DNA of 58,508 nt from Methanomassiliicoccaceae archaeon (GTDB lineage Archaea; Thermoplasmatota; Thermoplasmata; Methanomassiliicoccales; Methanomethylophilaceae): the NCBI GenBank assembly GCA_016281925.1, contig JAEEJP010000122.1, positions 1 to 58,508 of the forward strand. The letters run 5' to 3'. Below, piece by piece: positions 43,983-51,310 of the stretch. Numbering within the stretch: the first letter of the stretch is position 1; each line of letters begins with the position of its first letter. Made by a program: the position numbers and the translations under genes. The notes under the pieces are model-generated. The model did not search any database. It saw nothing but the letters and a program-made list of their open reading frames with translations, and had not been told where the DNA came from.

Positions 43983-44555
43983 TCAGGATCCGCCCTGGCA
44001 TCTCTTTATGATCTTCGCGGGGTTCCCGGCGACAACCGTCCCGGGCGGGACGTCTTTGGTCACCACCGATCCGGCGCCGACCACGGAGCCGTCCCCTATG
44101 GTGACTCCCGGCACTACGGTGACGTTCGCGCACAGCCAGACGTCGTTACCTATGCGAATCGGGCAGCCCTAGACCTTCCTGTCCCTCGTGTCCATCGGGT
44201 CGATGGGATGCACCGCGGTCACTATGGGGCAGTCCGGGCCTATCATCGTGTTGTCGCCGACCGAGATCTCCGCGGTGTCCAGGAAGGTGCAGTTGTAGTT
44301 GACCAGGACGTTTTTGCCAAGCTTTATGTTGAAGCCCAGGTCGCATCTGAACGGGGCCAGCACTCTCGTCCTTTCCTGGAGCCCGGCGCCGATCAGGGAC
44401 TCCATGATCCTGTCCCTTTCCTCGAGGCCGGTCTGGGGGGAGTTGAAGAGGGACAGCTTCTCCGCGCACGCCAGCAGGGCGCGGTTGTAGCCGTCGATGT
44501 CCCGGTCGCAGATTCCGACCCATCCTTCCTTCAGGCGCCGCATCCAGTCTTCCAT
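43983..44555 (-). CDS. Hexapeptide-repeat O-acetyltransferase with in-frame TAG (candidate pyrrolysine codon)
   Basis: Maltose/galactoside O-acetyltransferase type: N-terminal helical region, then left-handed beta-helix repeats ([34 protein letters not shown]). At codon 129 the frame meets TAG (44169-44171) between DRKV and [16 protein letters not shown], and the rest of the fold continues in the same frame to [14 protein letters not shown] and TGA. The total of 190 codons is the normal length. The TAG takes the place of a Tyr/Phe common in this family (E-Y-G-x-P). ATG 44555 fits a leaderless start: TTTTATAC lies 22 nt upstream. Either UAG is decoded or this is a fresh pseudogene. Confidence 0.8.
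44169..44171 (-). other. In-frame TAG codon in the acetyltransferase gene
   Basis: Single TAG at codon 129. Coding continuity is clear on both sides with no frame change. A Tyr TAC to TAG change would explain it if not decoded; decoding as pyrrolysine is possible in Methanomassiliicoccales. Confidence 0.85.
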
Positions 44556-47490: not shown

Positions 47491-48507
47491 ATGTTCGATG
47501 TAGTTTCTTCCGATCTCAGGGTAGAGTCCCAGAGAGTCCATTCTGTTCAGAGGCGTTTCGAGTACTACGAGCGCCAGGGCCTCGCGGAGCAGGCCGCCCT
47601 TGCCGAGCACCCGGTGACTCGCTTCGTGAAGAATCTTCCTGTGGAGGACCCCAGGTATCCTGCCATAGAGTACCTTAGACTTGCGCAGCAGGTCGGGAGG
47701 GACGTATGGGACGTTTTCGACGAGGTTCAGGAAGGCAGGGGGGAGTTCTCAGGAAAGGACGGGGAGACGATTTCATTCGAGCCGAGGCCTCATGAGTTCG
47801 TCACATGGTCCATGCCCGCCCATGACCTGCATCGCCCTGACGAAAAGGGGTGCGGCTTCATACGTTCCCCCTCTGGATCCATCGTTTTCACCATGTGCCC
47901 GGATCACCCGGAGCACTTCATTAAGGGGAAGCGTCACCACTGCTGGTCGCTCCATTGTCCAAATTGCATGAACGACACGGCGCTCAAGCACGGTGTCATG
48001 ATCGAGAGGCAGCTCCTCGTGTACCAGAGGCTGAACGAGAAGCAGGGCGTCGGCGTCGGCCAGATAGGGCACTGGGTCGTGTCTCCCCCTCAGGAGCTTG
48101 CCAAGTGCATGATGCAGACCTATGAGGACTTCGATACCCTTCAGAGGTACGTGGATGACACTATCATGTCGATAGGCGGCAAGGCGGGGATGACGGTGTT
48201 CCACCCCTGGCGCCAGAGGGAGGACTTCTGGGAGCTGTCCCCCCATTTCCACGTGCTCTGCTACGGATTCCTAAAGACCAAGAAGTTCCTGAAAGAGAAC
48301 CCCGGCTGGATCATAAAGAAAGTCCATCCCAGGGAGCGCATCAGGAGCATCCGCCACACTGCGGCTTATCTTTCAACGCACATGGGCCTCGGGCTGGTCG
48401 AACGCGACCCCGGTGACGTGGACTGGGACCTGGACCTCCTGGACCACATGGTCCCGGGGATTAAATCCCCCGGAGCCGGGTTCTCTGAAAGGGATTATGA
48501 AGACTAG
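47491..48507 (+). CDS. HUH-type rolling-circle replication initiator (Rep), N-terminal part up to TAG
   Basis: 338 residues before a TAG. The HUH metal motif is SPHFHVLCYG; the catalytic Tyr is in IRHTAAYLSTHMG. A zinc-like cluster HHCWSLHCPNC precedes them. Nicks the plasmid origin to start rolling-circle replication. The TAG at 48505-48507 follows ERDYED, and the next ORF continues in the same frame and contains the C-terminal Cys motif expected of archaeal Rep proteins, so the intended product is probably about 498 residues. Start ATG 47491 is just downstream of the structured block. Confidence 0.85.
   Translation: MFDVVSSDLRVESQRVHSVQRRFEYYERQGLAEQAALAEHPVTRFVKNLPVEDPRYPAIEYLRLAQQVGRDVWDVFDEVQEGRGEFSGKDGETISFEPRPHEFVTWSMPAHDLHRPDEKGCGFIRSPSGSIVFTMCPDHPEHFIKGKRHHCWSLHCPNCMNDTALKHGVMIERQLLVYQRLNEKQGVGVGQIGHWVVSPPQELAKCMMQTYEDFDTLQRYVDDTIMSIGGKAGMTVFHPWRQREDFWELSPHFHVLCYGFLKTKKFLKENPGWIIKKVHPRERIRSIRHTAAYLSTHMGLGLVERDPGDVDWDLDLLDHMVPGIKSPGAGFSERDYED
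48505..48507 (+). other. In-frame TAG codon within the Rep gene
   Basis: Codon 339 of Rep. The following six codons lead directly into the ORF at 48526 without frame change. Confidence 0.75.
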
Positions 48508-48525
48508 TCCCATGGGAAGGGCAGG

Positions 48526-48987
48526 ATGTGCGGCCTTGTCGATGATATCGACTGGGAGAAGTGGACGGAGGGCCGCCTGTCCAAGGAGACCCGCGTACGC
48601 TACTGGGGCGGCGTCGCCCGCAACAGGATCCGCCTCGTCGGCATCCACCGTCAGTACAAGGTGCGCGTCTGCCGGGAGTGCGGGGTGCTCCTCAGGACAT
48701 ATGAGGGCGCTGGCGATTCAGTCGGCAGTTATGTTAGGTACATTCAGGACAATCCGGTGTTCGCGATGGCAGATTACTTCGAGCAGGTGAAGACGGTGTA
48801 TCTCAAATTCAAGGACAATCTGAAGAGCGAGAACCTTACTTTTTCAGACTTTGCTTCCATGATTCCTTTCGCGGTATCCACGCTCGAATTATCTCTTTTT
48901 AGCGGATGCGATTTAGTCATGGATGGGCCTTTTCAAGAGCCTGATGAGTTTTTTCTTAGAAAGCAGAGGGAAGCCTTTCAATGCTAA
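48526..48987 (+). CDS. C-terminal part of Rep downstream of the TAG
   Basis: 153 residues, in the same frame as Rep and separated from it only by TAG plus six codons. RVRYWGGVARNRIRLVG followed by VCRECGVLLRTYEG resembles the strand and CxxC region that follows the catalytic Tyr in haloarchaeal and related Rep proteins. The ATG at 48526 has GGGCAGG only 2 nt upstream, a poor ribosome site, so independent initiation is less likely than read-through. Stops in TAA. The 3' part is more AT-rich than the start. Confidence 0.7.
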   Translation: MCGLVDDIDWEKWTEGRLSKETRVRYWGGVARNRIRLVGIHRQYKVRVCRECGVLLRTYEGAGDSVGSYVRYIQDNPVFAMADYFEQVKTVYLKFKDNLKSENLTFSDFASMIPFAVSTLELSLFSGCDLVMDGPFQEPDEFFLRKQREAFQC

Positions 48988-49683: not shown

Positions 49684-51310
49684 GTTTTGAGTGATCTTTT
49701 TGACGTCTGGCTATGGTCAAACTAAGATATTAAATAGTTATTCCGTAATACGGAATATATGGGAAGAGAGCCTGACGGCTGGGCCGTAGAATGGCTGCAA
49801 AAAATGAGGGAGAAAGGCAGCAGAGGGCTCACCGTTGAGAAGAACGGCGGGAGACATTACGTCTACTGGGCATCCACCAAGTGGATGCCCGAGACCAGGA
49901 AGCGCAAGAAGCTGACGGAGTACATAGGCATCCTCGAGCCGCCCGGGAACCTTGTGGTGTCCTCCAGCATAGACGTGGAGCGGATGAATCCGAAGGCCCT
50001 AGAAGCGGCGATGATCGATGCTGACAGGTATCGGAAGAGGCAGGAAGAGGTCATGGACTACCGCATCAAGGGCGCGATGGCGGTGTTCAGGAAGGCCTGC
50101 TCCGACTTCATCGACAATCTGAGGGAGTGCTTCCCGAGGACGTGCGACGACCTACTCATGCTCGCGATGGCCAGGCTGTCTGGGAGGGGCAGGCTGTGCC
50201 AGGCCGGCAGATGGTTCGCGACGCAGGACAATCTGATGTGCTTGAACGCGCACGCAGACCCGGACGCGCTGTCCGGTTCCCTGAGGCTGGCGGGCGGCGC
50301 CGTGGACGCCCAGAACAGGTTCTTCGAATCCCTCCGGACCCCCGGGAAGAGCATGGCGGTGGACCTGACGGTATGCTTCAGCAAGGGCCGCGCCTTTCTT
50401 GTCAAGAAGGGGTACAACCGCTTCAGGCTGTCCTGCGGACAGTTCAACATCGCGGTCATCTGTGGCTTGGAGGACAAGCTTCCTCAGGCCCTTAAGACCC
50501 AGGCCGGCAACGTGAAGGAGGGTTCCATAGTGGGCATGATCGGCGAGATGAACCTCGGCAGGGACTGCATCCTCGTCATGGACAGGGGCTACTTCTCCGC
50601 GGAGGTCATGGACGAGCTGCATTCCGCGGGATACGGCTTCGTCATACCGGTAAGGAGGAACTCGCCGCTGTACAATTCCGTCACGATCGACGGGTCCAAA
50701 GGGTTCACGTTCAGGGGCGACTCCGTCCTCTATTCCGCCGGCGGAGGGTTCGGGTATAACGCGTACAGGTTCGAGAACCAGAGGCTGAGGAACCAGGAGC
50801 TTACGGAGCTGATGGATCGCGGGGCCCCGCACGAGTGCGGCGGGCCCGCTTTCACGGAATGCGGGCAATACGATCTCAGCGGCGACCCGTCGAAGGCCGG
50901 CAACCTGATCCTCGTCACCAACCTGAACGAGGACCCGAGGCAGCTTTACACAATGTTCAAGATGAGGTGCTCCGTCGAGGAATGCAATGACTCGGCGAAG
51001 AACGTCATGTCGGCGGATAGCACGTACCTGAGGGACAACCTTTCTATCATGGGGTTCAACCTCGTGACATTCATTTCGCTCAGGATGTACATGACCATGG
51101 AGACGTGGATCGCCGACAGGGGGATGACGTCCAAATACACGCCACAGGACATCCTGTTCGAGTACAGCTCCATGGTGTCCGTCACCACCCAGAGCAGAGT
51201 TATGAACCAGCTGCTGCCCGCGAATGTCAGGAGAATCGAGGAGGATCTGGCCCTCGGCCTATTTCCACTCAGTCGATTGACTTATTCCGTAAAAATCGGG
51301 AGTTAGAGTT
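49648..51310 (+). mobile_element. IS4-type insertion sequence
   Basis: Terminal inverted repeats AACTCTAACTCCCG at 49648-49661 and its complement at 51297-51310. After a short T-rich spacer the similarity resumes as ACGGAATAAG on both ends. Total 1663 bp with one transposase. I see no target-site duplication: left flank GTAATTAT, right flank GAAATGTAAT. The copy interrupts the 3' end of the unknown ORF. Confidence 0.85.
49759..51306 (+). CDS. IS4/IS1634-like DDE transposase
   Basis: 515 residues. First Asp in SMAVDLTVCFS, second in LVMDRGYFS, and the C-terminal R-x3-E-x6-K part of the YREK signature in FKMRCSVEECNDSAKNV. Upstream region is typical of IS1634-type proteins (TRKRKKLTEYIGILEPPG). 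The gene appears intact. A perfect palindrome TATTCCGT-AAT-ACGGAATA (49739-49757) touches the start codon and repeats the ACGGAATA box of the termini, possibly for self-regulation. Ends in TAG, with TGA two codons later. Confidence 0.88.
   Translation: MGREPDGWAVEWLQKMREKGSRGLTVEKNGGRHYVYWASTKWMPETRKRKKLTEYIGILEPPGNLVVSSSIDVERMNPKALEAAMIDADRYRKRQEEVMDYRIKGAMAVFRKACSDFIDNLRECFPRTCDDLLMLAMARLSGRGRLCQAGRWFATQDNLMCLNAHADPDALSGSLRLAGGAVDAQNRFFESLRTPGKSMAVDLTVCFSKGRAFLVKKGYNRFRLSCGQFNIAVICGLEDKLPQALKTQAGNVKEGSIVGMIGEMNLGRDCILVMDRGYFSAEVMDELHSAGYGFVIPVRRNSPLYNSVTIDGSKGFTFRGDSVLYSAGGGFGYNAYRFENQRLRNQELTELMDRGAPHECGGPAFTECGQYDLSGDPSKAGNLILVTNLNEDPRQLYTMFKMRCSVEECNDSAKNVMSADSTYLRDNLSIMGFNLVTFISLRMYMTMETWIADRGMTSKYTPQDILFEYSSMVSVTTQSRVMNQLLPANVRRIEEDLALGLFPLSRLTYSVKIGS

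What the first reader, a model, noticed from the sequence alone, without database searches (positions are those of the whole stretch)
44169..44171. In-frame TAG inside an otherwise intact hexapeptide acetyltransferase
The fold continues in the same frame on both sides of TAG (DRKV | [11 protein letters not shown]) to a full-length C-terminus, and the codon occupies a Tyr/Phe position of the family. Methanomassiliicoccales are known to decode UAG as pyrrolysine, so this may be a non-methyltransferase Pyl protein, or a fresh Tyr-to-amber mutation.
Basis: partly seen in the sequence, partly recalled or inferred. Interest (0 to 1): 0.82.

Follow-up and report, generated by a model that had tools for sequence, protein, structure and literature searches.

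The report
Pyrrolysine codon inside archaeal sugar acetyltransferase
A methane-producing archaeon carries a stop-like TAG codon in the middle of an ordinary acetyltransferase gene, and because this genome has the pyrrolysine machinery and many other genes with the same kind of interruption, the codon is most likely read as the rare amino acid pyrrolysine rather than as a stop.

Summary
The TAG is real: codon 129 of a 190-codon hexapeptide acetyltransferase on the minus strand (44555-43983), in frame on both sides. The genome holds pylT, pylS, pylC, pylD, a pylB split over two contig ends, and two mtmB genes with in-frame TAG. In a 540-kb sample (27.5% of the genome), 20 of 48 TAG-ended ORFs run straight into coding-like sequence, against 25 of 439 TGA/TAA-ended ones; they include citrate synthase and riboflavin synthase. 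RNA polymerase A'' has TAG at the same codon in seven species of the genus. After the TAG, dN/dS is 0.155 against the closest ortholog. Best explanation: UAG is decoded as pyrrolysine and a full-length enzyme is made. The TAG is private to this species (1 of 8 copies compared); relatives mostly have Arg, not Tyr, so near-neutral acquisition is likelier than a functional pyrrolysine. Non-methyltransferase amber genes are already listed for 'Ca. M. alvus' and ISO4-H5: a new member of a known kind. A very recent nonsense mutation is not excluded. The conserved RNA-polymerase TAG is the more interesting lead.

The parts
43983..44555 (-). hexapeptide (left-handed beta-helix) O-acetyltransferase gene, 190 codons plus TGA, with one in-frame TAG
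44169..44171 (-). in-frame TAG, codon 129, most likely decoded as pyrrolysine
44172..44555 (-). codons 1-128: N-terminal helices, first beta-helix coils, invariant His116
43986..44168 (-). codons 130-190: further hexapeptide repeats (PF14602, PF00132) and C-terminus; dN/dS 0.155 against the closest ortholog

Best explanation
The gene encodes a maltose/galactoside-O-acetyltransferase-like enzyme whose codon 129 (UAG) is translated as pyrrolysine by the genome's own pylTSBCD system, so that a full-length 190-residue protein is made. Pyrrolysine is made from lysine by PylBCD, charged to tRNA-Pyl(CUA) by PylS, and competes with release factor at UAG; no local mRNA signal is needed. The TAG probably arose in this species only, at a variable position (Arg in most close relatives), perhaps through Lys AAG, and is tolerated because UAG is decoded efficiently. 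A catalytic role for the pyrrolysine is unlikely. Shown: the machinery, the frame, the constraint after the TAG, the pattern in the sampled part of the genome. Inferred: actual incorporation in this protein, efficiency, and neutrality.
For: pylS 256 bits over a 178 cut-off; tRNA-Pyl, anticodon CUA, next to it; PylC 306.8 and PylD 198.7 bits, both over cut-off; the two halves of pylB at the ends of contigs C94 and C8; two mtmB genes each with one TAG. In the sample of 539,821 bases, 20 of 48 TAG-ended ORFs against 25 of 439 TGA/TAA-ended ones have 30 open, coding-like codons right after the stop (Fisher p 7.6e-11; with a stricter score 13 of 48 against 17 of 439, p 5.7e-7). Of 27 TAG-joined ORFs printed I picked 10 by eye; in 7 of these 10 a Pfam match above its cut-off spans the TAG (citrate synthase, riboflavin/lumazine synthase, tRNA pseudouridine synthase, HAD hydrolase, D-aminoacyl-tRNA deacylase, ABC ATPase, ATP-grasp). 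Stops inside the matched part of riboflavin synthase and of TruA over the genus: 2 of 29 and 2 of 29 matched genomes, all four TAG. RNA polymerase A'' has TAG at the same codon in the 7 genus genomes whose open frame stops short there (of 26 genus genomes with a match). For this gene against the closest ortholog: dN/dS 0.388 over codons 1-128, 0.155 over 130-190 and 0.06 over 130-183.
Against: No peptide or transcript evidence. The TAG is in 1 of 8 compared copies, and in 1 of the 22 genus genomes that have any match at E<=1e-30, many of these only distant ones. Arg123, present in 36 of 36 other rows of the alignment, is Thr here. Amino-acid changes before the TAG polarise 16 to the window branch against 3 to the sister branch, 7 unresolved, a hint of relaxed constraint, though none of six single-outgroup relative-rate tests is significant (p 0.09 to 1.0). 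Of five further joined ORFs scanned none has a match shown to span its TAG. Up to 28 of 490 called genes may still use TAG as a real stop, so termination competes. The assembly is a 122-contig draft, 85.9% complete.
Confidence: 0.8

Rival explanations
1. A recent nonsense mutation: the gene is at the start of decay and the 128-residue product is non-functional. UAG is at most leaky here and the full-length protein no longer matters.
For: TAG absent from the 7 other copies compared; invariant Arg123 lost (36 of 36 others have Arg); 16 versus 3 polarised changes before the TAG on the window branch.
Against: No further lesion. Over codons 130-190 only 2 amino-acid changes fall on the window branch, both Arg to Lys, with 4 unresolved (3 of them in the last 5 codons), against 13 synonymous codon differences to the sister. 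TAG appears to be read through in many other genes of this genome, so a TAG here would not by itself abolish the product.
Confidence: 0.13
2. Regulated readthrough: the truncated and the full-length form are both made, and the ratio follows pyrrolysine supply (methylamines), making the enzyme conditional.
For: TAG may still be a terminator in part of the genes (up to 28 of 490), so competition is plausible. Competition between Pyl-tRNA and release factor is described in PMC9499178 (passages read).
Against: The 100 nt from the TAG do not fold better than shuffles (z 0.72; two mtmB genes likewise, z 0.84 and 0.39), so no signal is seen. Truncation at 128 removes about a third of the chain with several hexapeptide repeats, so a stable short form is unlikely (inference).
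Confidence: 0.05
3. Sequencing or assembly error.
For: Draft assembly; read depth is unknown.
Against: The excess of interrupted genes is specific to TAG, and TAG differs from the sister codon AGG at two bases.
Confidence: 0.02

Closest known systems
Putative Pyl-containing proteins of 'Ca. Methanomethylophilus alvus' (PMC4153887, section 12 read)
   Same: Same order; in-frame TAG in non-methyltransferase genes, half of them with homologs that lack it; 16 such proteins listed, including a 162-aa 'putative acetyltransferase' (AGI85596.1)
   Different: Other species. Whether AGI85596.1 is of the hexapeptide type was not tested. M. alvus uses TAG as stop in 1.6% of genes; here the sample gives up to 28 of 490.
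Amber genes of ISO4-H5 (PMC5011839, passages read)
   Same: 46 genes with in-frame amber, many outside methylamine use, plus insertion elements
   Different: Different gene set; the passages seen name no acetyltransferase
Pyrrolysine in tRNA-His guanylyltransferase of Methanosarcinales (Heinemann 2009; seen only as cited in PMC4153887 and PMC8211752)
   Same: Works alike: by its title, pyrrolysine gained by neutral evolution in a non-methyltransferase enzyme
   Different: Different protein and order
MtmB monomethylamine methyltransferase
   Same: In-frame TAG read as Pyl; two copies in this genome
   Different: There Pyl is catalytic and conserved (recalled); here the residue is private and the site variable
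Maltose / galactoside O-acetyltransferases (3ftt, 3srt, 1ocx, 1kqa)
   Same: Fold and invariant His
   Different: Scores 143 bits against a curated cut-off of 314 for maltose O-acetyltransferase; acceptor unknown

Membership tests
Pyrrolysine-containing protein | Genome encodes pylT, pylS, pylB, pylC, pylD | tested here: met
   pylB is split over two contig ends, 208 and 179 bits, each half below the 348 cut-off
Pyrrolysine-containing protein | In-frame UAG with homologous coding sequence on both sides and no likely start just after it | tested here: met
   first possible start is GTG at codon 148
Pyrrolysine-containing protein | Constraint continues after the UAG | tested here: met
   dN/dS 0.155 over codons 130-190 against the closest ortholog; the time since the TAG arose is unknown
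Pyrrolysine-containing protein | UAG conserved in orthologs (expected for functional Pyl, not for neutral Pyl) | tested here: not met
   1 of 8 copies; sister has AGG
Pyrrolysine-containing protein | Pyrrolysine found at the residue by mass spectrometry | not testable with these tools
   no proteome available
PYLIS-type local recoding signal | Stable downstream hairpin | tested here: not met
   z 0.72 for this gene; mtmB genes 0.84 and 0.39; PMC9499178 states that it is not required (passages)
Maltose O-acetyltransferase (NF007499 equivalog) | Score above curated cut-off | tested here: not met
   143 of 314 bits
Hexapeptide (LbH) acyltransferase | Hexapeptide repeats, LbH fold, catalytic His | tested here: met
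   PF00132 48.1 bits, PF14602 38 bits; His116 invariant in 37 rows; fold. That this His is catalytic is recalled.
Pseudogene | Further stops, frameshifts or relaxed constraint over the whole length | tested here: inconclusive
   no further stop or frameshift; Arg123 lost and excess changes before the TAG, but constraint after the TAG

The most novel reading that the evidence does not exclude
In this branch of the genus UAG has become an ordinary sense codon for pyrrolysine that the cell cannot do without. RNA polymerase subunit A'' carries UAG at one and the same codon in seven species (Lys AAG in two sister species). In the window's own genome riboflavin synthase, TruA, citrate synthase and D-aminoacyl-tRNA deacylase carry it too. 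Pyrrolysine, first tied to methylamine use, would then be needed for transcription itself, and the acetyltransferase is one of some tens of passengers of this fixed code.
Probability: 0.5. Interest if true: 0.65.

Novelty: new member of a known kind. Interest (0 to 1): 0.42.

Why it matters
On its own it adds one enzyme to the list of non-methyltransferase amber genes in Methanomassiliicoccales. With the pattern in the rest of the sampled genome it makes a testable case that UAG is used as a general sense codon in this lineage, and that standard gene calls truncate some tens of its proteins, including core ones (the number is scaled up from the sample). A TAG conserved across seven species in an RNA polymerase subunit would tie pyrrolysine supply to growth itself.

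Tried and rejected
Local recoding signal: the 100 nt from each TAG are not more stable than shuffles for this gene, either mtmB or RNA polymerase A''. Rfam found nothing at gathering score in the two pyl contig stretches L119 and L137; the tRNA-Pyl came from ARAGORN. A first look at residue 129 over 29 relatives mis-oriented the loci whose match lay on the minus strand, so those rows are nonsense; the statements rest. Control within the family: among the listed matches (a capped list) five relatives besides the window show one TGA or TAA inside the match; the two whose loci I held (G020, G017) turned out to be the normal end of the gene, 2 and 4 residues before the end of the match; the three TAA cases (G029, G013, G052) were not examined. 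Relative-rate tests for faster evolution of the window copy are not significant. Gene calls are a simple codon-score method: by eye some TAG-ended calls are antisense ORFs, and some extensions of TGA- or TAA-ended genes are the next gene in the same frame; the counts were not cleaned of these. The ten proteins were picked by eye out of 27, so 7 of 10 is not a rate. The TruA stretch was cut by me at residue 233; its frame runs on to a TAA at codon 533 with a second TAG at 511, so that case is less clean. In the RNA polymerase alignment one fetched locus (L169) did not match the search motif and dropped out, 18 of 19 shown. The TAG there lies 10 residues before the TIGR02389 match, so that domain does not span it; re-initiation is argued against by the lack of a common start after the TAG (first one at codon +49 in G026; but ATG at +6 in G001 and G002 and GTG at +12 in G000, G018, G029 and G006) and by the unbroken frame in two sister species. 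No scan of the metagenome collection was available, so strain-level conservation was not tested.

Literature: searches. The two searches joining pyrrolysine with RNA polymerase terms gave 0 papers and one genome paper on Thermoproteus tenax, listing and abstract start only. Of PMC3941956 I saw the abstract and outline. A 2025 paper on an archaeal code with all TAG codons as pyrrolysine (Kivenson and colleagues) is recalled, not seen; the searches aimed at it did not list it. If it covers this genus, the novel case above may be partly known.

Full report
Observation. The minus-strand ORF from ATG 44555 is interrupted at 44171-44169 by TAG (codon 129) and goes on in frame for 61 codons to TGA at 43985-43983. 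Pfam finds hexapeptide repeats (PF00132, PF14602). NCBIfam's best model is maltose O-acetyltransferase at 143 bits, below its cut-off of 314. The best PDB relatives are maltose and galactoside O-acetyltransferases. A model of the joined chain (Lys standing in for pyrrolysine) has mean pLDDT 89.7, and the best structural match is 3ftt, TM 0.88 over 191 columns. Residue 129 sits between His116 and the next beta-helix coils, in the ten-residue block with mean pLDDT 78.

Is the organism able to read UAG? The window is contig C28 of a 1.96-Mb, 122-contig genome, 85.9% complete. Contig C94 has pylS (255.9 bits, cut-off 178), a tRNA-Pyl with anticodon CUA at 1371-1441, the first half of pylB at its end, and an mtmB with one TAG. 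Contig C8 begins with the second half of pylB, followed by pylC (306.8 bits, cut-off 248) and pylD (198.7, cut-off 150). A second mtmB with one TAG is on C56. In the genus, 28 of 31 genomes have a PylS match at E<=1e-30. The order assignment rests on contigs of relatives whose lengths equal those of named records (for example G023 and DAXB01000054, a Methanomassiliicoccaceae MAG, both 25,779 bases) and is an inference for the window itself.

Does the genome use TAG inside genes? I sampled 539,821 bases (27.5%) including the window and called 490 genes by codon score: 386 end in TGA, 56 in TAA, 48 in TAG. Of the TAG-ended ones, 20 of 48 are followed at once by 30 open, coding-like codons, against 25 of 439 of the others with enough sequence (odds ratio 11.8, p 7.6e-11; with a stricter score 13 of 48 against 17 of 439). 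A looser measure (an extension of 40 or more codons with a good score) gives 18 of 48 TAG, 39 of 386 TGA and 9 of 56 TAA; by eye several of the TGA and TAA cases are the next gene in the same frame. One search printed 27 joined ORFs; of ten picked by eye, Pfam matches above cut-off span the TAG in seven: citrate synthase, riboflavin/lumazine synthase, tRNA pseudouridine synthase, HAD hydrolase, D-aminoacyl-tRNA deacylase, ABC ATPase and an ATP-grasp protein. In the other three, RNA polymerase A'' and a PHP protein have a match above cut-off that does not span it, and one has no match. Of five more joined ORFs none has a match shown to span its TAG: two have no match, one is a run of Sel1 repeats (14 stretches, only the best one placed), two match on one side or on each side apart. 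Scaled up, the sample suggests some 65-75 such genes in the genome (inference); ISO4-H5 has 46 reported (PMC5011839, passages).

Genus comparison. Riboflavin synthase has a stop inside the match in 2 of 29 matched genomes (G000 and G029) and TruA in 2 of 29 (G000 and G014), all four TAG. RNA polymerase A'' is the strongest case: of 26 genus genomes with a match, seven (G000, G001, G002, G006, G018, G026, G029) have an open frame of only 391-396 codons, and in these seven the frame before the conserved domain is interrupted by TAG at the same codon, while G014 and G009 have AAG (Lys) there in an unbroken frame; outside the genus the site is Leu, Ser, Asn, Val, Thr or Arg. In G026 the first possible start after the TAG is 49 codons on, so re-initiation would cut into the core of the protein; in the other six a possible start lies 6 or 12 codons on, not at one shared place. 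Two of the seven (G002 and G006) show no PylS match, but they are 61% and 82% complete.

The acetyltransferase itself. The closest ortholog, G001, is 82% identical and has AGG (Arg) at codon 129; DNA similarity runs over the whole gene and slightly beyond it. Of seven archaeal relatives five have Arg, one Gly, one Ser. Among 31 genus genomes a TAG inside the match is found in this genome only; the TGA listed for G020 and G017 is the normal end of those genes. Against G001 dN/dS is 0.388 before the TAG and 0.155 after it, 0.06 up to codon 183. Polarised with outgroups, the window branch has 16 amino-acid changes in codons 1-128 and 2 (both Arg to Lys) in codons 130-190, with 7 and 4 unresolved; the sister branch has 3 and 1. 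Arg123, present in 36 of 36 other rows, is Thr in the window. The distal part is thus not drifting, while the middle shows a few unusual changes. Since TAG is two substitutions from AGG and the window lineage shows Arg-to-Lys changes at 181 and 184, Arg AGG to Lys AAG to TAG is a plausible path (inference).

Mechanism. The likeliest reading is plain decoding of UAG by Pyl-tRNA in competition with release factor, without a local signal: no hairpin beyond chance was found here, in mtmB or in RNA polymerase A'', in line with PMC9499178 (passages). The product is a full-length acetyltransferase with pyrrolysine in place of Arg/Lys at a tolerant site. A role of pyrrolysine in catalysis is not indicated. 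[quoted passage not shown]

Limits. No peptide, no reads, no strains. The conclusion for this one protein leans on the behaviour of the genome, of which 27.5% was sampled. A mutation so recent that selection has not yet acted cannot be excluded.

Novelty. The kind is known: 16 non-methyltransferase candidates in 'Ca. M. alvus', one of them called a putative acetyltransferase, and 46 amber genes in ISO4-H5. A 2021 review still names only transposases and Thg1 beside the methyltransferases as known pyrrolysine proteins (PMC8211752, passages). The conserved TAG in RNA polymerase A'' was not found in the papers searched, with the limit that subscription papers are mostly missing and that a recalled 2025 paper on an archaeal pyrrolysine code was not available.

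Noticed in passing
L144:18729-17254 (-) and the same gene in L174-L179: RNA polymerase subunit A'' gene with TAG at one and the same codon in seven genomes of the genus; Lys (AAG) in two sister species. Suggests that pyrrolysine is needed in the RNA polymerase of this clade.
   Followed up: partly
L158:12333-11863 (-), L158:4338-5699 (+), L144:6536-7234 (+), L128:15027-13948 (-), L123:2399-1530 (-): Genes with one in-frame TAG inside the conserved domain: riboflavin synthase (G029 has one TAG too), citrate synthase, TruA (G014 has one TAG too; sites not compared; the frame here runs on past the expected end), D-aminoacyl-tRNA deacylase, ABC transporter ATPase.
   Followed up: partly
window 47491-48987 (+): An ORF of 338 codons followed after TAG by 159 more open, coding-like codons; no Pfam match; lies just before a DDE transposase gene (49759-51306) whose own TAG is followed by one codon and a second stop.
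   Followed up: no
L152:5954-6982 (+): TAG-interrupted ORF whose first residues match the TATA-binding protein family (32 bits).
   Followed up: no
L121:802-1923 (+) and after (contig C90): An AAA-ATPase-like ORF (by eye, no search) that seems to run on after an in-frame TGA; error, decay or something else.
   Followed up: no
G003 (search): A 96% complete genome of the genus without a PylS match at E<=1e-30; possible loss of the pyrrolysine system or an assembly gap.
   Followed up: no
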